Source of the DNA: Gilliamella sp. ESL0405 | GTDB taxonomy: Bacteria; Pseudomonadota; Gammaproteobacteria; Enterobacterales; Orbaceae | Assembly (NCBI RefSeq): GCF_019469205.1 | Contig: NZ_CP048265.1 | Location: 2,728,001 to 2,792,000 of the forward strand | DNA: 64,000 nucleotides | Reading direction: 5' to 3' | In this document: piece by piece, positions 8,639 through 64,000 of the stretch | How the letters are laid out: every line of letters begins with the position of its first letter | Position numbering within the stretch: position 1 is the stretch's first letter | The notes under the pieces: model-generated | Database searches by the model: none | The model's input: only the letters and a program-made list of their open reading frames with translations | Told to the model about the DNA's origin: nothing | Position numbers and translations under genes: made by a program

Positions 8639-9445
8639 TTATAAAACGGTCACTTTAAGATTATCAGCTTCCATTTGTTTAAAATATTTTAGTGTCTTGA
8701 CTTTAAGATCATCAGTGCTTGGCTCATCACAAACTATGATTGATGCAGGATGCATTTGTAGAGCAGTTACTGTCCATAAGTGGTTAATTGATCCTTCAAC
8801 ACCCGCTTGTAAAGCTAAGCTTTTATTATGTCCACAAACTAATAAAATGACCTCTTGCGCATCCATTAATGTTGCAACACCAATTGTTAGCGCATGTTTA
8901 GGCACTTGATCTTTGTCATTATCAAAGAAACGCGAATTCGCAATGCGAGTATCATCTGTTAAGGTTTTGATACGGGTACGGGAGCAAAGTGAAGAGCCGG
9001 GTTCATTAAATGCAATATGCCCATCTTGACCAACACCACCAACAAAAATATTAATTTTACCATAGGCTTTAATTTTTTCTTCATATTGACGACATTCGGC
9101 ATCGATATCTGGTGCATTTCCGTTTAATATATGAATGTTGTTTTTATCAATATCAATATGGTCAAAGAAATTTTCATGCATAAAAGTATGATAACTTTGT
9201 GGATGATCTTCTGGCAAGCCCACATATTCATCCATATTAAAAGTCACAACGTGTTTGAAACTCACTTTACCCGCTTGATACTGTTTAATTAATTGTTGAT
9301 ACATGACCAAAGGAGAGCTTCCGGTTGGCAAACCTAACAAAAACGGACGATCTGCTGTCGGGTTGAATTGGTTAATTTTATTAACAATACGCTGAGCAAC
9401 CCAAGCGCCTACTTCTTGGGCATTTTCTAAAGGAATGAGTCTCAT
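8639..9445 (-). CDS. nagB: Glucosamine-6-phosphate deaminase
   Basis: NagB converts glucosamine-6-phosphate to fructose-6-phosphate and ammonia, feeding glycolysis. The 268 residues carry the catalytic set at E. coli positions: D72 in FNMDEYVGL, then D141, H143 and E148 in [17 protein letters not shown]. It is the first gene of the nagBAC transcript, divergent from nagE across a 248-base control region. Confidence 0.97.
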
Positions 9446-9543
9446 GGGGGAATACCTCTTTTGATATAATTAAATAACTTCTTTTTTTTTAATGTAAAAT
9501 ATGTTGTCTGTATTCTACTATATTAATGTATTTAAGCAAAAAA

Positions 9544-9565
9544 AATCGTGACAAAAATCACAAAA
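9544..9565. promoter_or_regulatory. CRP site in nagB-nagE control region
   Basis: GTGA at 9548-9551 and TCAC at 9558-9561 are separated by six bases, the CRP half-site spacing, with A-rich flanks. It lies midway between divergent nagB and nagE, which are CRP-activated in E. coli. Confidence 0.7.
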
Positions 9566-9571
9566 AATGAA

Positions 9572-9596
9572 TAATTAATTTGCGAAGTAAAATAAT
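9572..9596. promoter_or_regulatory. Candidate NagC operator
   Basis: An AT-rich imperfect palindrome is centred on TTGCGAA: TAATTAATTTGCGAAGTAAA and the flanking AT bases. NagC boxes are AT-rich with a central C/G pair, and this is the only such element near nagE. No matrix was run. Confidence 0.45.
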
Positions 9597-9693
9597 ATAG
9601 AGTCAAATAGTAAATGATTTACTACAATTACTGAAAAAAGTGAAATTTCATTATTTTTCAAGTAACTCCCAAATAAATATATGAGGTAAAAAT

Positions 9694-11187
9694 ATGGGAA
9701 TTTTAGCTTATTTGCAACGTATCGGGCGCTCATTAATGGTGCCTGTCGCAGTATTACCTGCCGCCGCAATACTATTAGGCATTGGATATTGGATTGATCC
9801 AAATGGCTGGGGTACCAATAATATTATCGCTGCATTTTTAATTAAATCCGGCGGAGCTATTATTGATAATATGCCTATCCTTTTTGCAATTGGGGTAGCT
9901 TATGGTATGTCTAAAGATAAAGACGGTGCTGCGGCGCTTTCTGGTCTGGTTGGTTTTTTAATTATTACGACTTTATTATCGCCTAATACTGTGGCACTTT
10001 TTCAAGGAGTCGATACCAAACTAGCAGGCTGGGAAAGTCAGATATCACCAGCATTTGCAAAAATTAATAACCAGTTTATTGGTATTTTAGTTGGGATTAT
10101 TTCAGCTGAATTATACAACCGTTTTAGTTCTGTTGAACTGCATAAAACGTTAGCATTTTTCAGTGGTAAAAGATTGGTGCCAATCATTGTCTCTATCGTC
10201 ATGCTATTGGTTTCTGCTATCTTATATTTCATCTGGCCTGTCGTATATAGCTCATTAGTTGTATTTGGTGAATGGATTAAGAATTTAGGCTCGGTAGGTG
10301 CTGGTATTTATGGTTTCTTTAACCGTTTACTTATTCCTGTTGGTTTGCATCACGCACTCAATTCAGTATTCTGGTTTGACGTTGCCGGCATTAACGATAT
10401 TCCTTACTTCTTAGGTGGGCAAGAATCAATTGACGCCGGTCACGCTATTGTAGGTCAAACAGGTCGTTATCAAGCTGGATTCTTCCCGATTATGATGTTT
10501 GGTTTACCGGGTGCAGCATTAGCCATTTATCACACGGCTAAAAAAGCTAATAAAGATAAAACAGCGTCAATTATGCTCGCAGCGTCTTTTGCGGCATTCT
10601 TTACCGGGATTACTGAACCGCTTGAATTTGCCTTTATGTTTGTAGCACCAGTGCTTTATGTCATCCACGCTGTGCTTACCGGTATCTCATTATTTATCGC
10701 CGCTACCATGCAATGGATTTCTGGTTTTGCATTCAGTGCCGGTTTGATTGATATGTTACTACAAAGCCGTAATCCACTTGCTTTACATTGGTATATGCTA
10801 ATATTACAAGGTATCGTTTTCTTCGTTGTATATTACATTGTGTTCCGCTTTGTGATCGTTAAATTCAATCTTAAAACACCTGGTCGCGAAGATGGCGATG
10901 TTTCTTCTGAAGAAACGCAAAATCAAGAACAAGTACAAACAGTTGGCGATGTATCAAAACTTGCGCAACAGTACTTAGTTGTTGTCGGCGGTAAAGAAAA
11001 TCTCACCGGTATTGATTCATGTATTACCCGTTTACGATTAAACGTCAATGACTCAGATTTAGTTGACGAACAAGCGGCAAAAGCGCTTGGTGCAATGGCG
11101 GTGATTAAGTTAGGTAAAACCGGCGTACAAATCGTTGTTGGTCAGCAAGCAGAGAAAATTGCCGATCAGATGAAACAACTAGTTTAA
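9694..11187 (+). CDS. nagE: N-acetylglucosamine PTS permease, EIICB
   Basis: This inner-membrane protein imports and phosphorylates GlcNAc. The IIC domain covers about 1-385, starting with LAYLQRIGRSLMVPVAVLPA and including FFTGITEPLEFAFMFVAP. The IIB domain covers about 420-497 with the phosphocysteine in GIDSCITRLRL at position 443. The protein stops right after IIB at 497 residues, whereas E. coli NagE carries a fused IIA domain (about 650 residues). It therefore must take phosphate from a separate glucose-type IIA, probably Crr. Divergent from nagBAC and ended by a strong terminator. Confidence 0.93.
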   Translation: MGILAYLQRIGRSLMVPVAVLPAAAILLGIGYWIDPNGWGTNNIIAAFLIKSGGAIIDNMPILFAIGVAYGMSKDKDGAAALSGLVGFLIITTLLSPNTVALFQGVDTKLAGWESQISPAFAKINNQFIGILVGIISAELYNRFSSVELHKTLAFFSGKRLVPIIVSIVMLLVSAILYFIWPVVYSSLVVFGEWIKNLGSVGAGIYGFFNRLLIPVGLHHALNSVFWFDVAGINDIPYFLGGQESIDAGHAIVGQTGRYQAGFFPIMMFGLPGAALAIYHTAKKANKDKTASIMLAASFAAFFTGITEPLEFAFMFVAPVLYVIHAVLTGISLFIAATMQWISGFAFSAGLIDMLLQSRNPLALHWYMLILQGIVFFVVYYIVFRFVIVKFNLKTPGREDGDVSSEETQNQEQVQTVGDVSKLAQQYLVVVGGKENLTGIDSCITRLRLNVNDSDLVDEQAAKALGAMAVIKLGKTGVQIVVGQQAEKIADQMKQLV

Positions 11188-11218
11188 TTTATTATAACTA
11201 TAACATTTGATTGATTTT

Positions 11219-11260
11219 GCCCACTCTATTCGCTTAACTTTAAATAGGGTGGGCTTTTTT
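11219..11260 (+). terminator. Rho-independent terminator of nagE
   Basis: GCCCACTCTATT pairs with AATAGGGTGGGC (one G-T wobble) and is followed by TTTTTT at 11255-11260. Confidence 0.85.
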
Positions 11261-11262
11261 AT

Positions 11263-11399
11263 CTAACCAGCCCACAAAAATTCATTGTACCTTTGTAAAT
11301 ATTTACCGTTGGTAAAATCGGTTGCGACTGTTTTAATTTATTTAGTCAGTTGAGAGGTTGCAGATCAAATCCGGTTTTCAATATAAATATCAATATCAA
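11263..11399 (-). pseudogene. tusB: Probable decayed tusB remnant
   Basis: Immediately after the tusC stop, one reading frame on the minus strand reads DIYIENRI, stop, SATSQLTK, stop, IKTVATDFTN, GKYLQRYNEFLWAG, stop. TusB proteins end in a similar way: an ILEND-ARGL-like block, an I-K-V-[YD]-[FT] strand, and a final aromatic W. In E. coli tusB directly follows tusC. There is no room for the N-terminal half: only about five codons separate the tusC stop from the first recognisable block. I infer a deletion plus two nonsense mutations. Similarity is by eye and short, so chance resemblance is possible. Confidence 0.5.
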
Positions 11400-11753
11400 T
11401 TAGAAACGTAAAATCATATCTTGCTTAGCAAGTAGTTGATTTAACGTTGACCTATCAATAATTTGAGTGGGAATATTTAACGTAATATCAGTTAGATGCT
11501 CTGCTTTAAGTGAAGATTGGTCTACATAAACATCTTCAATATCATAAAGTTCAAGCATATTAAATGTCGCAATATAATCACGCATCAATATTTGTTCAGG
11601 CGATTGATTTGTCAATAAATGAAAGATACCACTATCGATAAATATAACCGATATATGGTTAATTGCAGACAGGGCTAAGGCGGCATCAAGTGCTTCTCTG
11701 CCTTTAGCGTTACCATGAGGTGGCGAGCTAATAATGATTGCAACGTTTTTCAT
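11400..11753 (-). CDS. tusC: Sulfur relay protein TusC
   Basis: TusC is part of the TusBCD complex that relays persulfide sulfur from TusA to TusE for 2-thiolation of tRNA wobble uridine. The 117 residues match E. coli TusC closely: ISSPPHGNAKGREALDAAL, then RDYIATFNMLELYDIEDVYV, ending in ILRF. It lies 16 bases after tusD on the same strand. The partner gene tusB seems to be a fragment downstream. Confidence 0.93.
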   Translation of the reverse strand: MKNVAIIISSPPHGNAKGREALDAALALSAINHISVIFIDSGIFHLLTNQSPEQILMRDYIATFNMLELYDIEDVYVDQSSLKAEHLTDITLNIPTQIIDRSTLNQLLAKQDMILRF

Positions 11754-11769
11754 TGAATATGACCTTAAC

Positions 11770-12138
11770 CTAAAATTGAATCACACGATCTGATTCGGCT
11801 ATTGATTCGCCCAGTTCGCCAAGCCCGGTTAATTCAAAATAGTCAGCAAGATTATCTTCAGTAATACCTCGCCGTTGTGCAGCAGCAACACAAACCGTTA
11901 ATCGAATAGCGTATTTTTTTGCTAATTGTTGCCATGCGTTAACTAAATCAAACTCATCACTAGCTGGATCGGTACAACGGTTTGCGTTGTAACAACCATC
12001 TGCATAAAAAAAGATATTTTCAATGCGGTGTGGAGTATGAGCCAGTAGAGCTTGTGCAAATTGATAAGCACAATAAGCTGATTGGGTCCCATAAGCAGGA
12101 CCCAAAATGACAAGTGTATAGTTTAAAGCGTTAACCAA
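11770..12138 (-). CDS. tusD: Sulfurtransferase TusD
   Basis: TusD carries the catalytic cysteine of the TusBCD sulfur relay used in tRNA 2-thiouridine synthesis. The 122 residues show LGPAYGTQSAYCAYQFAQAL, then YNANRCTDPASDEFDLVNAWQ, and the active cysteine C83 in TVCVAAAQRRG. No ATG fits; the start used is a TTG at 12138, without a clear ribosome binding site, 16 bases after fkpA. The order fkpA-tusD-tusC is that of E. coli without yheO. Confidence 0.9.
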   Translation of the reverse strand: MVNALNYTLVILGPAYGTQSAYCAYQFAQALLAHTPHRIENIFFYADGCYNANRCTDPASDEFDLVNAWQQLAKKYAIRLTVCVAAAQRRGITEDNLADYFELTGLGELGESIAESDRVIQF

Positions 12139-12154
12139 ATTCGTTAACCACGGG

Positions 12155-12967
12155 TTATTGTTGTGGTTCAGCTGAAGGTTTTACTTTTTCTTCATGCCCT
12201 AACGGTTGAATGCTTTGCTGAGAATCATCGCCATCAATGCCGAGTAATTCAACTTCAAATACAAGTGTCGATGCTGGTCCGATACCCGGTTTGTCTCCTT
12301 GACCACCCCGTTTTTGATCGCCATAAGCTAATTCAGGTGGAACAACTAACTTAATTTTACCGCCAACGCCAATTAATTGAATGCCTTCAGTCCAACCACT
12401 AATTACCGCTTTTAATGGGAATGTTGCTGTTTCGCCATGATCATAAGAACTATCAAATTTCTGACCGTTGGTTAATGTTCCTACATAGTGAACAATTACG
12501 CTATCATCCGCGGTTGGATGACGCCCATTGCCTTCTTTAATAATTTGGTAAAGTAATCCAGACTTAGTTTGATTTACACCTTTTTGTTTAGCAAATTCTT
12601 GACGGAATTTTTCACCAGCGGCGGTATTGTCAGTTTTTTCTTTTTCAAAACGTGCTTTGCTCTCTTTTTCAACACGTTCACGAAATGCGTTTAACGTTTT
12701 TTTAATTTCATCTTCTGAAAGTTGTGATGCGCCACGATAGGTTTCTTCAAAACCACCGATTAAATATTCTAAATCTGTTTGAATTTCGTTTTGGTCTAAA
12801 TTATCTTTCATATAGGTTGCAAAAGAGGAGCCTAACGCATAAGACTCTTTTTGTGCATCAGTCGAAATGGTAAGTTTGCCAGTAGATGCATTTTCGTTTT
12901 CATTACAGCCGGCTAATGCAAATACCATTGCACTACTTATTAAAGTCATTTTAATCAATGATTTCAT
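12155..12967 (-). CDS. fkpA: FkpA-like peptidyl-prolyl isomerase lipoprotein
   Basis: This 270-residue protein catalyses proline cis-trans isomerisation and acts as a chaperone in the periplasm. An N-terminal helical dimerisation domain (about 35-130) is followed by an FKBP domain (about 140-243), with VHYVGTLTNGQKFDSSYD, GWTEGIQLIGVGGKIKLVVP and PELAYG. Unlike E. coli FkpA, the signal peptide ends in a lipobox (ALAGC, Cys21), so it should be membrane-anchored. Its place before tusDC is conserved with E. coli, which supports the symbol. Confidence 0.88.
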   Translation of the reverse strand: MKSLIKMTLISSAMVFALAGCNENENASTGKLTISTDAQKESYALGSSFATYMKDNLDQNEIQTDLEYLIGGFEETYRGASQLSEDEIKKTLNAFRERVEKESKARFEKEKTDNTAAGEKFRQEFAKQKGVNQTKSGLLYQIIKEGNGRHPTADDSVIVHYVGTLTNGQKFDSSYDHGETATFPLKAVISGWTEGIQLIGVGGKIKLVVPPELAYGDQKRGGQGDKPGIGPASTLVFEVELLGIDGDDSQQSIQPLGHEEKVKPSAEPQQ

Positions 12968-13127
12968 TTTACTTCTCCGAGTTAAATGGTTTTTTGTTAT
13001 TATTCACAACATTATATATGAATTAAAACTTTATAAAATAATATTTACAAATCATTTATTTAAATACCAGATACCAATATTATTTCCAGCGATTTAATCA
13101 ATCAAAGCCTTGTGGTTGAAATCATCC

Positions 13128-57182: not shown

Positions 57183-57587
57183 TTATTCTTCTGCCTCTGA
57201 GACTTGAATAGTGTAACTTTCTTCAAAATAAGAAGCTGGCACATACCAGAAAGCAGAAGACATCTTTCCTTTAATAACAACTTTAATATCACCTGTTATT
57301 TTGGGAATGCCTTTCACTGCTAAATAATTATATTCAACATAACCATTTATTTCAGGAAATATAATTTCTAATCCAGAATTTTTTGGATAAATTTCCCTCA
57401 GAAATCCTCTTTCTAAAATTGGTCCAGAACCGCCTCGAATGTTAATCGTAGTATAATAATTTTTACCTATAACAGCTTTCGGTAGCTCATGAGGCGTTAT
57501 CATTACTTTCGGGGCGACGATACAACCTATCAATAAAAAACAGACTGAAAAAACGATACATAATCTTTTAAATTTTAATTTTCTCAT
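57183..57587 (-). CDS. Small lipoprotein with Ig-like (He_PIG-type) domain, copy 1
   Basis: This 134-residue protein has a lipoprotein signal: hydrophobic CIVFSVCFLL, then LIGC with the lipidated Cys22. The next residues (IVA) do not signal inner-membrane retention. The rest reads like one putative Ig domain of the He_PIG type: HELPKAVIGKNYYTTINIRG, GGSGP, NSGLEI, AVKGIPKITGDIKVVIKG. It is a paralogue of the gene at 57857-58249; signal peptides are near identical while the domains differ. Function is unknown. Location beside immunity-like genes suggests a periplasmic protective role, but nothing in the sequence proves it. Confidence 0.7.
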   Translation of the reverse strand: MRKLKFKRLCIVFSVCFLLIGCIVAPKVMITPHELPKAVIGKNYYTTINIRGGSGPILERGFLREIYPKNSGLEIIFPEINGYVEYNYLAVKGIPKITGDIKVVIKGKMSSAFWYVPASYFEESYTIQVSEAEE

Positions 57588-57856: not shown

Positions 57857-58249
57857 TTATTCTTCTGAATCTGCTACATGAATAATATAAATTTTTTTAA
57901 AATCACCAGGCGTGATATTCCAGTAAGTCGGAGTCATTCCCCCTTTAATAATAACCTCAATATCACCTGTGATTTTTGGGATCCCTGTCACTGCTATATA
58001 ATTACGTTCAACCATTCCATCTATTTCACGTAATATTATTTCTAATCCAGAGTTTTCGGGATAAATTCTCGTCCAAAAAGAAAGTGGTCCAGAGCCTCCT
58101 TCAACATTAATCGGCGCATAATAATTTTTACCTCTAATTCCTTTTGGTAATTCATTCGGTGTTATAATGACAGGGGTGACAACACAACCTATCAATAAAA
58201 AACAGACTAAAAAAACGATGCATAATCTCTTAAATATTAATTTTCTCAT
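57857..58249 (-). CDS. Small lipoprotein with Ig-like (He_PIG-type) domain, copy 2
   Basis: This 130-residue paralogue of the gene at 57183-57587 has the same lipoprotein signal (FLLIGC, Cys22) and the same domain pattern: NELPKGIRGKNYYAPINVEG, GGSGPLSF, NSGLEIILREI, AVTGIPKITGDIEVIIKG. The stop-codon surroundings (GATGAAATATTATTCTTCTG on the plus strand) and the start-proximal DNA are also shared, so the pair arose by tandem duplication including flanks. It lies 45 bases after the Imm52-like gene on the same strand, probably in one transcript. Function unknown. Confidence 0.7.
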   Translation of the reverse strand: MRKLIFKRLCIVFLVCFLLIGCVVTPVIITPNELPKGIRGKNYYAPINVEGGSGPLSFWTRIYPENSGLEIILREIDGMVERNYIAVTGIPKITGDIEVIIKGGMTPTYWNITPGDFKKIYIIHVADSEE

Positions 58250-58294: not shown

Positions 58295-59015
58295 TTACAT
58301 GTCTGTATACAATGGCAATAGATCCAACTCACGTAGCCGAATATCAACCCGATTCACCGCTTTAATATCATCTGCATTTTCTGTATCAAAAAAATGGGGC
58401 AACGTTACCACTAGCGTTCCGGTTACCAGTCCTTCCTCGTTTTTGACACTTACCACATCCGACGATTCGGGTACTATTTCGTGCGTTAATTGAGCCTTGG
58501 GTAGATATATCATCCAGCCTGCTGATAGTCTGTCGGGAAAAACAGCTTTTCGGGGTAAATAATTTCCATTAACTATAATATAGGCACTATTAAATTTCTG
58601 AACTAAGGCTAAAATGAACTCAGTGACTGTTTGAGATTTAGTAATCCTAATATCTATTTTGAAATCTAATTCAATTTTAAGGAAAAATCTTTTCTCTAAA
58701 AGTTTCTCATATATAAAATAACATAGAGCTGCCTCTTCAGTATTTTTATCCCAAATAGATCCACTAAAAGAATTCTTATTTTTCTTATATTTTTGAGTTA
58801 TTTTTTCCAATCCAACTTTAGTTACGCCATTTTTATCAAATAGCTGGTAAATAGATGACTTTTTTCTTAGAAACACCACATAAGTACCAATTTTCACTTT
58901 TATGAAGATAGTAATGCTGGATTTTTAATATCTGTTCAATTTGCGCAATACACACAGAGAGTGGTAAATAGGCTTCAGGTTTGAAATACATCTCAATAGT
59001 TAATTGTTTTTTCAT
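58295..59015 (-). pseudogene. Imm52-like immunity gene with frameshift
   Basis: An ATG at 59015 opens MKKQLTIEMYFKPEAYLPLS and continues to NWYLCGVSKKK, where a run of six A (plus strand T run, 58860-58865) shifts the frame. Removing one A joins it to the frame that continues SSIYQLFDKNGVTK and ends in RVDIRLRELDLLPLYTDM. The joined product of about 240 residues resembles the Imm52 immunity family (GWMIYLP, TGTLVVTLP, final LLPLYTD). A 200-residue product could start at an internal ATG (58897) inside the shifted frame. The shift may be decay, slippage-based phase variation or a sequencing error. Family call is by pattern only. Confidence 0.6.
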
Positions 59016-59024
59016 ATTGGCTTA

Positions 59025-59255
59025 CTATAAATAACTCCTTATTGGTAATAAATCAGCATCACGCAATCTTAAATCAATACGATTGATTGTTTTCACATCT
59101 TCGGTGTTTTCAATACTTGGCATATGATCAAGCGATACAATCACTGTTCCTAGCTGTTTATCGTCTTTATATTTAGCTATATCTTCAAATTCTGTCCAAT
59201 TAAACATCAATGAATCATAATTAGCTTTCATCATTGATTGAAGCAGGTTTATCAA
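59025..59255 (-). pseudogene. Truncated Imm52-like gene, C-terminal end
   Basis: The 76-codon frame ends in GTVIVSLDHMPSIENTEDVK, then TINRIDLRLRDADLLPIRSYL. This parallels the end of the neighbouring Imm52-like gene (GTLVVTLPHFFDTENADDIK, then AVNRVDIRLRELDLLPLYTDM). The N-terminal two thirds are missing; upstream the sequence runs straight into the stop of the first Sel1-repeat gene. Nine bases after its stop the next Imm52-like start follows. It is best read as a relic left when the tandem array expanded or recombined. Confidence 0.6.
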
Positions 59256-59269
59256 GATTTTTAATCAAA

Positions 59270-60427
59270 CTAGGGTTTAGGGTGAAAATCATCTATCTGA
59301 TCTCGCCATTCATTGTAATCCCAAGTTACAATTTTGGTTTTCAGCGTTTCCAAATAGTCTAAAGCCGCTTGTTTTTCGGTTAAAGTAAGCATTTGTTCTA
59401 AACGATTTTGGATTTCTTTGTTATATTCCCAAACCGGTGGGAGTTGATAAGCATACCACGCTAAATTATTGCCTATCTCGATAATTTTTTGTTTTGCATA
59501 ATCACTCAACAGCGACCAGGCATAGGCTTTAACAAAATCTTGCTCTCGACCTAATCCATAGAAATACGCTTCAGTCATGCGCAATATGCCGATAATTGAG
59601 CTATGCTCTGCCATTAGCTGCGCATAATCTATTGCCTGTTTTAAATCGTCTGATTTTAATACGTTACGGTATTCGGTTAATTTATTCAGCTGTTCATATT
59701 TTTGATCTTTATAGTGAGCTGCTTGTTGAAATAACATACTGCCTATCAAATTTTCGTAGCAATGATAGCCACCTTCAATGGCGTAATTAAAATACTCAAT
59801 ACTTTTTTCTAATCGCTCATCTGGACAGGGGCGTGCCATACCTTGTTCATCATACCCACAAAAACCCATTTGCCAACCTTTTTTAAAGGCAAAATAGGGA
59901 TATTTTAAATCGGCAAACCGATCCATTAAATACCATTTTATTTGAGAACTTTTAAACACCGCTGGTTCAACTAACGGTTTACCTGCACTATCCACTAACT
60001 GATCCCGATACTTATCCATAAATTCTATAAATGAGATCATCCCTTCTTCTTTGTAATCTTCATCAAAGAATTTATGCCAATTAAGGAGAGAGTAATAATA
60101 CGGCATGGCATTTTTATCCCATTGCCAGGCATGTTTTAAAAACTTGACTAAATTGTCCGGACTAACTACCGCATAAAATACTTGATCGTCAAATGCTGAA
60201 TGATAAAGCTTTTTAGCCTCATCTATGCGTAATAATTGATTTTCAGGAATGGTTGAAGGGTAAATTGTAAAGTCCATAGGTAAGTTTTCGGATTCAACAA
60301 AACCAAAATTGACTTGTCTATCGGATGATTGATTAAAATAGAATTGATAAAGGCTAATAACCATTATCACGCTCATGGCTAACATGACTATTTTGAACGT
60401 TGAACGTTTCAATTTGCTATTCTTCAC
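59270..60427 (-). CDS. Membrane-anchored Sel1-repeat protein, array copy 1
   Basis: This 385-residue protein of unknown function has a basic N-terminus, one membrane helix (about 11-31) and a large domain predicted to face the periplasm. Residues about 280-312 (GILRMTEAYFYGLGREQDFV, then KAYAWSLLSDYAK) form a Sel1-like helical repeat, and SIEYFNYAIEGGYHCYENL near 209-227 may be another. It is almost identical to copy 2 except in the last third (for example WYAYQLPPVW in place of WDAEQLPPVW). It ends in CCC-TAG, unlike the other copies, where the truncated Imm52 relic begins. Sel1-type proteins in tandem copies are common among immunity proteins; that role is inferred. Confidence 0.8.
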   Translation of the reverse strand: MKNSKLKRSTFKIVMLAMSVIMVISLYQFYFNQSSDRQVNFGFVESENLPMDFTIYPSTIPENQLLRIDEAKKLYHSAFDDQVFYAVVSPDNLVKFLKHAWQWDKNAMPYYYSLLNWHKFFDEDYKEEGMISFIEFMDKYRDQLVDSAGKPLVEPAVFKSSQIKWYLMDRFADLKYPYFAFKKGWQMGFCGYDEQGMARPCPDERLEKSIEYFNYAIEGGYHCYENLIGSMLFQQAAHYKDQKYEQLNKLTEYRNVLKSDDLKQAIDYAQLMAEHSSIIGILRMTEAYFYGLGREQDFVKAYAWSLLSDYAKQKIIEIGNNLAWYAYQLPPVWEYNKEIQNRLEQMLTLTEKQAALDYLETLKTKIVTWDYNEWRDQIDDFHPKP

Positions 60428-60517
60428 ACGCTATTCCCTGCACTAAAACTCACTCTATCCAGATTAATCTCTATTATTCAACCTCAAATTTTACTCACTG
60501 CAATATAGTCAAATAAA

Positions 60518-61675
60518 TTACGGTTTAGGGTGAAAATCATCTATCTGATCTCGCCATTCATTGTAATCCCAAGTTACAATTTTGGTTTTCAGCGTTTCCA
60601 AATAGTCTAAAGCCGCTTGTTTTTCGGTTAAGGTAAGCATTTGCTCCAAACGATTTTGGATTTCTTTGTTATATTCCCAAACCGGTGGTAGTTGCTCTGC
60701 ATCCCACGCTAAATTATTGTCTATCTCGATAATTTTTTGTTTTGCATAATCACTTAACAGCGACCAGGCATAGGCTTTAACAAAATCTTGCTCTCGACCT
60801 AATCCATAGAAATACGCTTCAGTCATGCGCAATATGCCTATAATTGAGCTATGCTCTGCCATTAGCTGCGCATAATCTATTGCCTGTTTTAAATCGTCTG
60901 ATTTTAATACGTTACGGTATTCGGTTAATTTATTCAGCTGTTCATATTTTTGATCTTTATAGTGAGCTGCTTGTTGAAATAACATACTGCCTATCAAATT
61001 TTCGTAGCAATGATAGCCACCTTCAATGGCGTAATTAAAATACTCAATACTTTTTTCTAATCGCTCATCTGGACAGGGGCGTGCCATACCTTGTTCATCA
61101 TACCCACAAAAACCCATTTGCCAACCTTTTTTAAAGGCAAAATAGGGATATTTTAAATCGGCAAACCGATCCATTAAATACCATTTTATTTGAGAACTTT
61201 TAAACACCGCTGGTTCAACTAACGGTTTACCTGCACTATCCACTAACTGATCCCGATACTTATCCATAAATTCTATAAATGAGATCATCCCTTCTTCTTT
61301 GTAATCTTCATCAAAGAATTTATGCCAATTAAGGAGAGAGTAATAATACGGCATGGCATTTTTATCCCATTGCCAGGCATGTTTTAAAAACTTGACTAAA
61401 TTGTCCGGACTAACTACCGCATAAAATACTTGATCGTCAAATGCTGAATGATAAAGCTTTTTAGCCTCATCTATGCGTAATAATTGATTTTCAGGAATGG
61501 TTGAAGGGTAAATTGTAAAGTCCATAGGTAAGTTTTCGGATTCAACAAAACCAAAATTGACTTGTCTATCGGATGATTGATTAAAATAGAATTGATAAAG
61601 GCTAATAACCATTATCACGCTCATGGCTAACATGACTATTTTGAACGTTGAACGTTTCAATTTGCTATTCTTCAC
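60518..61675 (-). CDS. Membrane-anchored Sel1-repeat protein, array copy 2
   Basis: This 385-residue copy has the same layout as copy 1: membrane helix at about 11-31, Sel1-like repeat near 280-312. Its DNA is a mosaic. From about 60838 upward (the N-terminal part and spacer) it is identical by eye to copy 1. From 60518 to about 60893 (the C-terminal third) it is identical to copy 3, including WDAEQLPPVW. The two identities overlap at about 60838-60893, where a crossover probably happened. No own promoter is visible in the 90-base spacer. Function unknown; immunity protein is the working guess. Confidence 0.8.
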   Translation of the reverse strand: MKNSKLKRSTFKIVMLAMSVIMVISLYQFYFNQSSDRQVNFGFVESENLPMDFTIYPSTIPENQLLRIDEAKKLYHSAFDDQVFYAVVSPDNLVKFLKHAWQWDKNAMPYYYSLLNWHKFFDEDYKEEGMISFIEFMDKYRDQLVDSAGKPLVEPAVFKSSQIKWYLMDRFADLKYPYFAFKKGWQMGFCGYDEQGMARPCPDERLEKSIEYFNYAIEGGYHCYENLIGSMLFQQAAHYKDQKYEQLNKLTEYRNVLKSDDLKQAIDYAQLMAEHSSIIGILRMTEAYFYGLGREQDFVKAYAWSLLSDYAKQKIIEIDNNLAWDAEQLPPVWEYNKEIQNRLEQMLTLTEKQAALDYLETLKTKIVTWDYNEWRDQIDDFHPKP

Positions 61676-61765
61676 ACGCTATTCCCTGCACTAAAACTCA
61701 CTCTATCCAGATTAATCTCTATTATTCAACCTCAAATTTTACTCACTGCAATATAGTCAAATAAA

Positions 61766-62926
61766 TTACGGTTTAGGGTGAAAATCATCTATCTGATCTC
61801 GCCATTCATTGTAATCCCAAGTTACAATTTTGGTTTTCAGCGTTTCCAAATAGTCTAAAGCCGCTTGTTTTTCGGTTAAGGTAAGCATTTGCTCCAAACG
61901 ATTTTGGATTTCTTTGTTATATTCCCAAACCGGTGGTAGTTGCTCTGCATCCCACGCTAAATTATTGTCTATCTCGATAATTTTTTGTTTTGCATAATCA
62001 CTTAACAGCGACCAGGCATAGGCTTTAACAAAATCTTGCTCTCGACCTAATCCATAGAAATACGCTTCAGTCATGCGCAATATGCCTATAATTGAGCTAT
62101 GCTCTGCCATTAGCTGCGCATAATCTATTGCCTGTTTTAAATCTTCTACTTTTAATGTACTACGGTATTCGGTTAATTTAATTATTTGTTTATATTTCTC
62201 ATCCTTATAATGGTCACCTTGTTGAAATAACATTCTGGCTATCAAATCCTCGTAGCAATGATAACCACCTTCAATCGCATAGTTTAAATACTCAATACTT
62301 TTTTCTAATTGCTCATCTGAACAGGGGCGCGTCATGCCTTGTTCATCATACCAACAAAACCCCATTCCCCAACCTTTTTCATAGGCAAAATAGGGATATT
62401 TTAAATCAGCAAACTTATCCCATAAATAATTGCTCATATCAAAATTTTTAAACACTACTGGCTCTACTAATGGGTTACCCGCACTATCCACTAGCTGATC
62501 CCGATATTTGCGCATAAACTCATCAAAGGACATCATAATACCGTCCTCTTTTCCTCTTTCATCATAAAGGTCTTTCCAAACAAGAAGTTTATAGTAATAT
62601 GGCATGGCATTTTTATCCCATTGCCAGGCATGCTTTAGAAATTTTATTAACTTTTCTGGATGAGTTACTCCGTAATATACGCCATCATCAAATGCTGATT
62701 CATACAGCTTTTTAGCTTCGTCTATGCGTAATAATTGATTTTCAGGAATGGTTGAAGGGTAAATTGTAAAGTCCATAGGTAAGTTTTCGGATTCAACAAA
62801 ACCAAAATTGACTTGGCTATCGGATGATTGATTAAAATAGAATTGATAAAGGCTAATAACCATTATCACACTCATGGCTAACATGACTATTTTGAACGTT
62901 GAACGTTTCAATTTGCTATTCTTCAC
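61766..62926 (-). CDS. Membrane-anchored Sel1-repeat protein, array copy 3
   Basis: This 386-residue copy shares its first 75 residues with copies 1 and 2 (one change, SSDSQ for SSDRQ) and its last 120 with copy 2. The middle, about residues 76-265, differs clearly: KLYESAFDDGVYYGVTHPEK, VWKDLYDERGKEDGIMMSFD, and YLWDKFADLKYPYFAYEKGW. That middle is closer to copy 4. Ends conserved and centre variable is the pattern expected if the centre recognises a partner, for example a toxin. Membrane anchor and Sel1-like repeat are intact. Confidence 0.8.
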   Translation of the reverse strand: MKNSKLKRSTFKIVMLAMSVIMVISLYQFYFNQSSDSQVNFGFVESENLPMDFTIYPSTIPENQLLRIDEAKKLYESAFDDGVYYGVTHPEKLIKFLKHAWQWDKNAMPYYYKLLVWKDLYDERGKEDGIMMSFDEFMRKYRDQLVDSAGNPLVEPVVFKNFDMSNYLWDKFADLKYPYFAYEKGWGMGFCWYDEQGMTRPCSDEQLEKSIEYLNYAIEGGYHCYEDLIARMLFQQGDHYKDEKYKQIIKLTEYRSTLKVEDLKQAIDYAQLMAEHSSIIGILRMTEAYFYGLGREQDFVKAYAWSLLSDYAKQKIIEIDNNLAWDAEQLPPVWEYNKEIQNRLEQMLTLTEKQAALDYLETLKTKIVTWDYNEWRDQIDDFHPKP

Positions 62927-63016
62927 ACGCTATTCCCTGCACTAAAACTCACTCTATCCAGATTAATCTCTATTATTCAACCTCAAATTTTACTCACTGC
63001 AATATAGTCAAATAAA

Positions 63017-64000
63017 TTACGGTTTAGGGTGAAAATCATCTATTTGTTTGCGCCATTTATTATAATTCCAAGTGACCACTTTGGTTTTCAGTGTTTCCAA
63101 ATAGTCTAATGCCGCTTGTTTTTCGGTTAAGGTAAGCATTTGTTCCAAACGATTTTGGATTTCTTTGTTATATTCCCAAACCGGTGGGAGTTGCTCTGCA
63201 TCCCACGCGAAATTGTTACCTATCTCGATAATTTTTTGTTTTGCATAATCACTTAACAGCGACCAGGCATAGGCTTTAACCGGATCTTGCTCCCGCCCTA
63301 ATCCATAGAAATACGCTTCAGTCATGCGCAATATGCCTATAATTGAGCTATGCTCTGCCATTAGCTGTGCATAATCTATTGCCTGTTTTAAATCTTCTAC
63401 TTTTAATGTACTGCGGTATTCGGTTAATTTATTCAGCTGTTCATATTTCTGATCTTTATAGTGTTCCCCTTCTTGAAATAATATTCGAGCAGTCAAAGCT
63501 TCGTAACAATGATAGCCACCTTCAATCGCATAGTTTAAATACTCAATACTTTTTTCTAATTGCTCATCGGTACTTGGTGGCATCATTCCTTGTTCATCAA
63601 ACCAACGAGGCGCATAACTATAAGACTTACGATAAGCAAAATAAGGATATTTTAAATCAGCAAACTTATCCCATAAATAACCTCTCATTTCAACATTTTT
63701 AAACACTATTGGCTCTACTAATGGATTACCTGCACTATCAACTATCTGATCCCGATATTTGCGCATAAACTCATCAAAGGACATCATAATACCGTCCTCT
63801 TTTCCTCTTTCATCATAAAAGTCTTTCCAACCAAGAAGTTTATAGTAATATGGCATGGCATTTTTATCCCATTGCCAGGCATGCTTTAGAAATTTTATTA
63901 ACTTTTCTGGATAAATTACTCCGTAATATACGCCATCATCAAATGCAGATTCATACAGCTTTTTAGCCTCATCTATACGTAATAATTGATTTTCAGGAAT
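63017..64000 (-). CDS. Membrane-anchored Sel1-repeat protein, array copy 4 (partial)
   Basis: The reading frame is open from the stop at 63017 to the window edge (327 residues); the N-terminal membrane helix lies outside. An internal ATG at 63856 is not the true start: the sequence upstream of it continues IPENQLLRIDEAKKLYESAF as in the other copies. This copy is the most diverged, with RKSYSYAPRWFDEQGMMPPS in the centre and WNYNKWRKQIDDFHPKP at the end, but has the same Sel1-like repeat. It is the upstream-most copy seen, so whatever precedes it beyond 64000 probably drives the array. Confidence 0.8.
   Translation of the reverse strand: MPENQLLRIDEAKKLYESAFDDGVYYGVIYPEKLIKFLKHAWQWDKNAMPYYYKLLGWKDFYDERGKEDGIMMSFDEFMRKYRDQIVDSAGNPLVEPIVFKNVEMRGYLWDKFADLKYPYFAYRKSYSYAPRWFDEQGMMPPSTDEQLEKSIEYLNYAIEGGYHCYEALTARILFQEGEHYKDQKYEQLNKLTEYRSTLKVEDLKQAIDYAQLMAEHSSIIGILRMTEAYFYGLGREQDPVKAYAWSLLSDYAKQKIIEIGNNFAWDAEQLPPVWEYNKEIQNRLEQMLTLTEKQAALDYLETLKTKVVTWNYNKWRKQIDDFHPKP

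What the first reader, a model, noticed from the sequence alone, without database searches (positions are those of the whole stretch)
59270..64000. Tandem array of near-identical membrane-anchored Sel1-repeat genes
Four copies of an unrecognised protein, each with an N-terminal membrane helix and a Sel1-like repeat, lie head to tail with identical 90-base spacers. Known biology: tandem immunity-gene copies accumulate next to polymorphic or type VI toxins, and Sel1-repeat proteins occur among them. Inference: this is an immunity array for a periplasm-acting toxin, with copy number giving dosage or breadth. No toxin is inside the window.
Basis: partly seen in the sequence, partly recalled or inferred. 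Interest (0 to 1): 0.78.

Follow-up and report, generated by a model that had tools for sequence, protein, structure and literature searches.

The report
Immunity-gene array beside T6SS toxin
A bee-gut-type bacterium carries five tandem, partly shuffled copies of a membrane-anchored gene directly behind a type VI secretion spike gene and a likely protease toxin, so the array most probably protects it from that toxin and perhaps from variants fired by its neighbours.

Summary
The array is real and continues past the window: five genes, not four. Only copies 1 and 2 are near-identical (99%); identities of copies 3, 4 and 5 to copy 1 are 85, 82 and 74%. The Sel1 match is weak (20.6 bits; Pfam cut-off 30.7). 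The 334-residue protein has an invariant His/Cys pair (YFGHG...LHSCRG, 9 of 9 aligned members) resembling clan CD cysteine peptidases. The order VgrG - 334-aa gene - array gene recurs in 9 of 9 family genomes holding both genes, with overlapping stop/start codons in 7 of 7 pairs read. I read the locus as a T6SS effector with a homogeneous immunity array. The copies are mosaics: synonymous divergence runs from 0.04 to 0.61 along one gene pair, and copies 1/2 carry a segment 91% identical to another strain's effector-adjacent copy, which favours breadth over mere dosage. Tandem Sel1-type immunity genes beside VgrG effectors are known (Klebsiella VgrG4, Pseudomonas PldB); the toxin class and the mosaic architecture are the newer parts. 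Nothing was tested at the bench, the protease call is below curated cut-offs, and one genome (G002) has the effector without an intact array gene.

The parts
59270..60427 (-). array copy 1 (385 aa), farthest from the effector
   Evidence: residues 83-160 91% to the effector-adjacent copy of G031
60428..60517 (-). 90-base spacer between copies 2 and 1
   Evidence: identical to the next two spacers
60518..61675 (-). array copy 2 (385 aa), 99% to copy 1
61676..61765 (-). 90-base spacer between copies 3 and 2
61766..62926 (-). array copy 3 (386 aa), hybrid: residues 83-160 like copies 4/5, C-terminal part like copy 2
62927..63016 (-). 90-base spacer between copies 4 and 3
63017..64000 (-). array copy 4, cut by the window edge; whole gene is L021:7017-8177 (386 aa). 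Beyond the window, same strand: copy 5 (L021:8269-9420), 334-aa effector (L021:9420-10424), VgrG (L021:10435-13092); window position = L021 position + 56000
58295..58897 (-). 200-aa Imm52-like frame downstream of the array (probably a separate immunity gene; not one of the five)
   Evidence: PF15579 E 0.036, below cut-off; PADLOC PDC-M17B E 3.4e-5; decayed copy of its C-terminus at 59034-59192
57183..57587 (-). small lipoprotein-like gene (134 aa), possible older immunity gene
   Evidence: 62% to its neighbour, 31-32% to genes inside the VgrG arrays of G013
57857..58249 (-). small lipoprotein-like gene (130 aa), possible older immunity gene

Best explanation
This is a satellite VgrG locus of a type VI secretion system in a Gilliamella-like genome: VgrG, one effector and a homogeneous array of five immunity genes. 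Proposed working: the VgrG spike carries the 334-aa effector into a neighbouring cell (inferred from gene order). The effector has no signal peptide and lands in the target's periplasm (inferred). There it cuts an envelope protein with a clan CD-type His114/Cys153 dyad (inferred from conservation and weak profile matches). Each array protein is held in the inner membrane by one N-terminal helix with its body facing the periplasm (predicted topology) and binds the incoming effector (inferred). Copy 5, whose start overlaps the effector's stop codon, is the cognate one (inferred). Copies 1-4 arose by tandem duplication (inferred) and were shuffled by recombination (follows from the divergence patterns), so the array holds three versions of the central segment and probably covers effector variants of other strains; the 1/2 duplicate adds dosage at most. 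The confidence below is for the core (effector plus its immunity array); the protease and periplasm steps are less sure (about 0.6 and 0.65).
For: VgrG and the 334-aa gene adjoin the array; the genome has VipB and six VgrG. The order VgrG - effector - array gene is found in 9 of 9 genomes holding a near-full effector and the array gene (three VgrG pieces run off contig ends; in G041 effector and array gene are broken). Effector stop and array-gene start share one base in 7 of 7 pairs whose both ends were read (L021, L080, L084, L085, L086, L088, L094). Co-occurrence in 44 family genomes: near-full effector in 10, array gene (200+ residues) in 15, both in 9; Fisher p 6e-5 (genomes are not independent, cut-offs chosen afterwards). 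Some array genes away from an effector are broken: G005, G016, a second copy in G031. Effector: H110, H114, C153 invariant in 9 of 9 members; PF01364 in 7 of 9 and PF00656 in 3 of 9 at E<=0.1; hhalign to a C25-hit set scores 35.5 against a maximum of 23.5 in 50 column shuffles and 22.0 for the array protein as control. Mosaicism: copy 1 against copy 3 has pS 0.04, 0.61 and 0.11 in leader, 83-160 and 263-end; leader and body trees conflict, AU p 2e-5, 6e-4 and 1.4e-3. Residues 83-160 of copy 1 (copy 2 is identical there) are 91% to G031's effector-adjacent copy.
Against: No bench proof of toxicity, protection or binding. G002 has a full-length effector with His/Cys intact but only a decayed stump of the array gene behind it and no array-gene match in its genome, so protection is not indispensable there or that effector is silent. 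Orphan array genes without a near-full effector stay open in G013 (two), G021 and G035, so decay of orphans is not general. G007 has effector and array genes but no VipB match. Pfam matches of the effector are below cut-off (14.7 of 23; 14.6 of 21.4), four unrelated families appear at similar E-values among the nine members, the score against a C14 set (20.9) lies inside the shuffle range (max 26.9), and the model is unusable (pLDDT 35). pN is below pS wherever the bodies have synonymous differences, so no positive selection for diversification is shown. The similarity of copy 1 to G031 is confined to residues 83-160; at 161-262 G031 is only the fifth listed match (71%).
Confidence: 0.75

Rival explanations
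1. Dosage only: the copies are redundant and extra copies simply raise the amount of one immunity protein.
For: Copies 1 and 2 are 99% identical and copies 4 and 5 share the central segment.
Against: Three different central segments exist; residues 83-160 of copy 1 are 91% to another strain's effector-adjacent copy, while its own copy 5 is not among the six best matches listed, the lowest of which is 74%.
Confidence: 0.25
2. The array protects against some other, displaced effector, and the 334-aa gene is a newcomer or an accessory (loading or processing) protein.
For: Displacement is common in these loci: six other loci (L081, L082, L083, L091, L093, L095) have a remnant of the effector's last ~40-48 residues before an array gene; caspase-like domains are often processing peptidases in polymorphic toxins (PMC3482391, passages).
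Against: The same pair adjoins in 9 of 9 genomes, with overlapping codons in 7 of 7 pairs read; distances of effector and adjacent copy correlate (r 0.88 over 7 strains, 0.77 without G039), though shared ancestry alone could give this.
Confidence: 0.12
3. The array proteins are themselves secreted toxins or envelope proteins, as reported for one Klebsiella Sel1 protein that slowed E. coli growth (PMC12469244, passages).
For: That report; weak Sel1 match.
Against: N-terminal hydrophobic stretch in 21 of 21 aligned members; position directly behind the effector; some orphan copies decaying.
Confidence: 0.06
4. Assembly artefact or a non-functional gene cluster.
For: Tandem repeats are prone to misassembly; reads were not available.
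Against: Copies differ from each other and all five frames are open; 2 copies in G007, 3 in G003 and at least 3 in G041 occur in other assemblies.
Confidence: 0.03

Closest known systems
Klebsiella pneumoniae vgrG4 with five downstream sel1 genes; Sel1E is the immunity protein (PMC7108748, passages seen)
   Same: VgrG locus followed by five tandem Sel1-type genes, one shown to protect
   Different: There the toxin is part of VgrG4 itself and Sel1D did not protect; here a separate 334-aa protein stands between VgrG and the array, and the Sel1 signal is weak
Pseudomonas aeruginosa PldB (Tle5b) with three Tli5b immunity proteins (PMC6684961 and PMC13133936, passages seen)
   Same: Separate VgrG-delivered effector with three immunity genes described as having Sel1-like repeats
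   Different: The effector is a phospholipase; no direct sequence comparison was made, and the A3 profile search of solved structures listed only 4bwr and 1qzm
Homogeneous polyimmunity loci of polymorphic toxin systems (PMC3482391, passages seen)
   Same: Tandem paralogues of one immunity type
   Different: Families named in the passages seen are SUKH, Imm6, Imm11, Imm28, Imm33, Imm36 and Imm41, not this one
Sequential displacement arrays of Vibrio cholerae (PMC5361080, passages seen) and C-terminal displacement of VgrG/Rhs in bee gut Orbaceae (PMC8125069, section 10 and passages seen)
   Same: Satellite VgrG loci, retained immunity genes, effector tail remnants in related loci
   Different: The Vibrio authors argue against duplication for their arrays; here the copies look like duplicates with later recombination
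Tox-Caspase / clan CD peptidases (PMC3482391, PMC4357240, passages seen)
   Same: His then Cys, 39 residues apart here and 42 in caspase-7 (His144/Cys186)
   Different: Below curated cut-offs; fold not shown; a stand-alone VgrG-linked form
Cpe1, T6SS papain-like cysteine protease toxin (PMC12136450, passages seen)
   Same: Antibacterial cysteine protease with cognate immunity
   Different: Papain-like; cleaves the cytoplasmic GyrB and ParE

Membership tests
VgrG-linked T6SS effector-immunity module | VgrG gene directly upstream | tested here: met
   10 of 10 loci with a near-full effector, three of the VgrG cut by contig ends (L090, L092, L094)
VgrG-linked T6SS effector-immunity module | candidate immunity gene directly downstream of the effector | tested here: met
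   9 of 10 genomes with a near-full effector (broken in G041); exception G002, decayed stump
VgrG-linked T6SS effector-immunity module | T6SS machinery in the genome | tested here: met
   VipB in the window's genome; in 9 of 10 genomes with a near-full effector, 32 of 44 overall; other T6SS genes not searched
VgrG-linked T6SS effector-immunity module | toxicity and neutralisation | not testable with these tools
   needs bench work
Sel1 repeat proteins (PF08238) | match above the curated cut-off of 30.7 bits | tested here: not met
   20.6, 21.8 and 18.8 bits for copies 1, 3 and 5; 13 of 21 relatives match at E<=0.01, their bit scores not shown
Sel1 repeat proteins (PF08238) | helical repeat fold | tested here: inconclusive
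Homogeneous polyimmunity locus | several tandem paralogues of one type beside a toxin gene | tested here: met
   five copies beside the effector candidate; immunity and toxin roles inferred
Clan CD cysteine peptidases | conserved His then Cys dyad | tested here: met
   H114 and C153 invariant in 9 of 9 members
Clan CD cysteine peptidases | match above the curated cut-off of C14 or C25 | tested here: not met
   14.6 of 21.4 and 14.7 of 23 bits for the window's own effector
Clan CD cysteine peptidases | caspase-haemoglobinase fold with the dyad at the ends of strands 3 and 4 | tested here: inconclusive
   model of one relative has pLDDT 35; its strand-helix-strand-helix-strand order before the His motif would fit but is not reliable
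Sequential effector displacement array | effector 3'-end remnants ahead of retained immunity genes | tested here: not met
   tblastn with the effector finds no tail in the spacers of this array; found in six other loci and between copies in L090

The most novel reading that the evidence does not exclude
A stand-alone clan CD cysteine protease is a periplasm-acting antibacterial T6SS effector, and its inner-membrane-anchored inhibitors form a recombining library: a constant anchor and constant C-terminal part around swappable central segments, so that a strain collects protection against the effector alleles of its gut competitors by gene conversion rather than by acquiring whole new immunity genes.
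Probability: 0.35. Interest if true: 0.72.

Novelty: new variant of a known kind. Interest (0 to 1): 0.5.

Why it matters
Tandem immunity genes are known, but whether copies mean dose or breadth is seldom testable. Here one array holds three recombinant versions of the central segment, one with a close match in another strain's effector-adjacent copy, so breadth can be tested directly with existing alleles. If the effector is a clan CD protease it adds an enzyme class to VgrG-linked antibacterial effectors, and its immunity proteins would be a new set of protease inhibitors. My paper searches listed no paper that I recognised as describing this effector or array; searches list 20 of 62 and 20 of 526 papers, and preprints and most subscription journals are outside that library.

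Tried and rejected
Structure of the effector: AlphaFold2 on one relative (L052, the only homologue from a source the tool names) gave pLDDT 35 and was not used further. The array-protein model from five such sequences gave pLDDT 54; structural comparison says little beyond 'helical'. Profile comparison with a bacterial caspase (C14) set did not exceed shuffles; a first version of that comparison used wrongly oriented loci and was discarded. The C25-hit set is small (seven loci) and three of them are below that family's cut-off. PADLOC and NCBIfam gave nothing for the two array copies given. Relatives outside the family: among 394 evenly drawn genomes of the order the effector profile matched 10 of the same family and one weak other (E 7.6e-4, 59 positions), the array profile 14 of the same family and five weak partial ones in other families. 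No match to the effector in viral contigs, plasmids or phages and none to the array protein in plasmids; the array protein was not searched in viral contigs or phages. Promoters: the consensus scan found 34 sites against 41.3 expected and none in the array's spacers. Rows dropped: copy 2 was left out of A3 and the trees as a near-duplicate of copy 1; the quick leader tree leaves out G039 and G041_C113, the quick body tree G041_C113, the AU trees both. Two AU tests did not reject: a wider five-row leader clade (p 0.11) and the window bodies 1, 3, 4, 5 as one clade (p 0.073); a sixth test stopped with an error because it had only two rows.
Full report
WHAT IS THERE. The window is bases 2728001-2792000 of a single-contig genome of 2,809,609 bases. 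The one named relative found is Gilliamella sp. wkB171, whose contig has the same length as G007:C19 and the same effector; that Gilliamella belongs to Orbaceae is recalled, and I use that name for the family of the 44 genomes searched. On the minus strand four open frames lie head to tail at 59270-64000, the fourth cut by the window end. Reading on in L021 (window position = L021 position + 56000) gives the rest of copy 4, a fifth copy of 383 residues (L021:8269-9420), a 334-residue protein (9420-10424), a VgrG of 885 residues (10435-13092; Phage_GPD E 1e-58, DUF2345, T6SS_Vgr, base-V domain) and, from 13706, a D-alanyl-D-alanine carboxypeptidase followed by what I read as rodA and penicillin-binding genes. 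Transcription order is VgrG, 334-aa gene, copies 5, 4, 3, 2, 1, then Imm52-like remnants and two small lipoprotein genes.

THE COPIES. Identities to copy 1 are 99, 85, 82 and 74% for copies 2 to 5. The three spacers between copies 4 to 1 are the same 90 bases; the 5-4 spacer is 91 bases and slightly different; the shorter spacer between the two copies of G007 (L080) is recognisably the same sequence. All 21 aligned members have an N-terminal hydrophobic stretch (19-residue mean 1.70 to 3.06) with a net positive N-side, and after residue 60 no 19-residue mean exceeds 1.09. By the positive-inside rule (recalled) the body would face the periplasm. The flank after the helix is neutral or negative except in L080 copy 1, L081 and L086.

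MOSAIC HISTORY. Counting synonymous differences in segments, copy 1 against copy 3 has pS 0.04 in the leader, 0.20 at 51-82, 0.61 at 83-160, 0.33 at 161-262 and 0.11 to the end. Copies 4 and 5 differ at pS 0.55 in the leader, 0.15 at 51-82, only 0.02-0.04 at 83-262, and 0.18 to the end. Copies 2 and 3 have no synonymous difference after column 262. Such jumps within one gene pair point to recombination. pN is below pS wherever the bodies have synonymous differences, so positive selection is not shown. In the quick trees leaders of copies away from the effector (window 1, 3, 4; G007 second copy; G003 copies 2 and 3; G035) group together across strains, SH-aLRT 91, while bodies group mostly by strain, with window copy 1 going to G031 (98). 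AU tests reject the distal bodies as one clade (p 2.3e-5) and reject one clade for the leaders of the three G003 copies (p 6e-4) and of the two G007 copies (p 1.4e-3); a wider five-row leader clade (p 0.11) and one clade of the window bodies 1, 3, 4, 5 (p 0.073) are not rejected. Groups were named after seeing the quick trees, so the p-values are optimistic. My reading: a distal paralogue with its own leader and spacer is older than the strain splits, and bodies were homogenised and shuffled since. Over residues 83-160 copy 1 is 91% identical to the effector-adjacent copy of G031, the next three listed being 81, 78 and 76%; at 161-262 its best match is G007's adjacent copy (79%) and G031 has 71%.

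THE PARTNER. The 334-aa protein begins with a polar stretch, without a signal peptide by inspection, and no 19-residue mean exceeds 1.68 in the nine members. In the window's protein and eight relatives at 44-65% identity the motifs YFGHG and LHSCRG are invariant. Peptidase_C25 matches 7 of 9 members (best E 0.0024) and Peptidase_C14 3 of 9 (0.026) at E<=0.1; Raptor_N (caspase-like) 2 of 9; but four unrelated families also appear, best E 0.009 to 0.025. The window's protein scores 14.7 and 14.6 bits, below the cut-offs of 23 and 21.4. Profile-profile comparison with seven loci found by the C25 model scores 35.5 (E 2.3e-4, probability 44%), above 50 column shuffles (max 23.5) and the array protein (22.0), and aligns the GHG and Cys motifs; three of the seven are below that family's cut-off. 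With 20 C14 loci it scores 20.9, inside the shuffle range (max 26.9). In clan CD the dyad is His then Cys at the ends of strands 3 and 4, caspase-7 His144/Cys186 (PMC4357240, passages); here the spacing is 39. I call it clan CD-like, not a member of C14 or C25.

COMPARATIVE EVIDENCE. In the 44 family genomes held, the effector query matches 12 and the array query 19. With a near-full effector (10 genomes) and at least 200 residues of array gene (15 genomes), 9 have both, 1 effector only (G002), 6 array gene only (G005, G013, G021, G030, G034, G035), 28 neither; Fisher p 6e-5, not corrected for relatedness. In the 9 the array gene follows the effector directly; copies at the effector locus are 5 (window), 2 (G007), 3 (G003), 1 (G015, G031, G039, G024), at least 1 (G014, contig end) and at least 3, partly broken (G041). 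VgrG precedes the effector in 10 of 10, three times cut by a contig end. In 7 of 7 pairs with both ends read the effector's last base is the array gene's first, suggesting coupled translation. Six other loci (L081, L082, L083, L091, L093, L095) carry the effector's last ~40-48 residues in front of an array gene; L091 also keeps its first 72 residues, and in L082 and L083 further tails stand in repeated units with other immunity-like genes. This resembles effector displacement as described for V. cholerae (PMC5361080, passages) and VgrG displacement in bee gut Orbaceae (PMC8125069, section 10 and passages). The Vibrio paper argues against duplication as the source of its arrays; here duplication followed by recombination is the better account.

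AGAINST. G002 keeps an intact-looking effector but only a decayed leader stump behind it and no array-gene match. Orphan array genes stay open in G013, G021 and G035. G007, a draft of about 60 contigs, lacks a VipB match. No toxicity, binding or topology was tested. The Sel1 assignment fails its cut-off, although the best solved-structure match is c5321 (4bwr, E 3.8e-5; 0.0038 with the profile), which I recall as a Sel1-type protein.

KNOWN OR NEW. Two close precedents: K. pneumoniae vgrG4 with five sel1 genes, Sel1E protective and Sel1D not (PMC7108748, passages), and P. aeruginosa PldB with three immunity proteins in which Sel1-like repeats were identified (PMC13133936 and PMC6684961, passages). 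Caspase-like domains are predicted toxins or processing peptidases in polymorphic toxins (PMC3482391, passages). So the kind is known. The effector family, its clan CD-like nature and the recombining anchor-body architecture are the variant. The main texts of two bee-gut T6SS papers do not contain the words Sel1 or protease.

VERDICT. My odds: immunity array for the adjoining effector about 0.75 to 0.8; periplasmic action about 0.65; clan CD protease about 0.6; breadth rather than dosage about 0.55.

Noticed in passing
window 58295-59030: An Imm52-like gene appears frameshifted (its likely N-terminal part lies in another frame upstream, my reading), and a decayed copy of its C-terminus lies at 59034-59192.
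   Followed up: partly
window 57183-57587 and 57857-58249: Two lipoprotein-like genes (62% alike) are 31-32% identical to genes inside the VgrG arrays of G013 (L082, L083), so the window end looks like a mixed immunity locus.
   Followed up: partly
L082 5495-13096, L083 1-5000: VgrG with a different 272-aa effector candidate (no Pfam match), followed by a repeated unit of a 198-aa gene, a lipoprotein gene and a remnant of the 334-aa effector's tail; one unit in each locus also has an array gene.
   Followed up: partly
L080 13143-15201, L081 7-2101: Another tandem array, of lipoprotein genes behind the two array copies of G007 and at the start of another of its contigs; the one gene tested is DUF2931 (PF11153 E 3.2e-22).
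   Followed up: partly
L089 8249-10550: G002: effector followed by a decayed leader stump of the array gene, a VgrG tail piece and a Tle1-like phospholipase gene (PF09994 E 5.4e-16).
   Followed up: yes
G007 whole genome: Carries VgrG, effector and array genes but no VipB match: possible loss of the secretion system with the immunity genes kept, or a gap in the draft.
   Followed up: no
own genome C1:172000-181600, 1181000-1183000, 1255300-1260000, 2391900-2392750: Several clusters of genes with strong, multiple Sel1 repeats (107 matches in the genome), at other places than this array.
   Followed up: no
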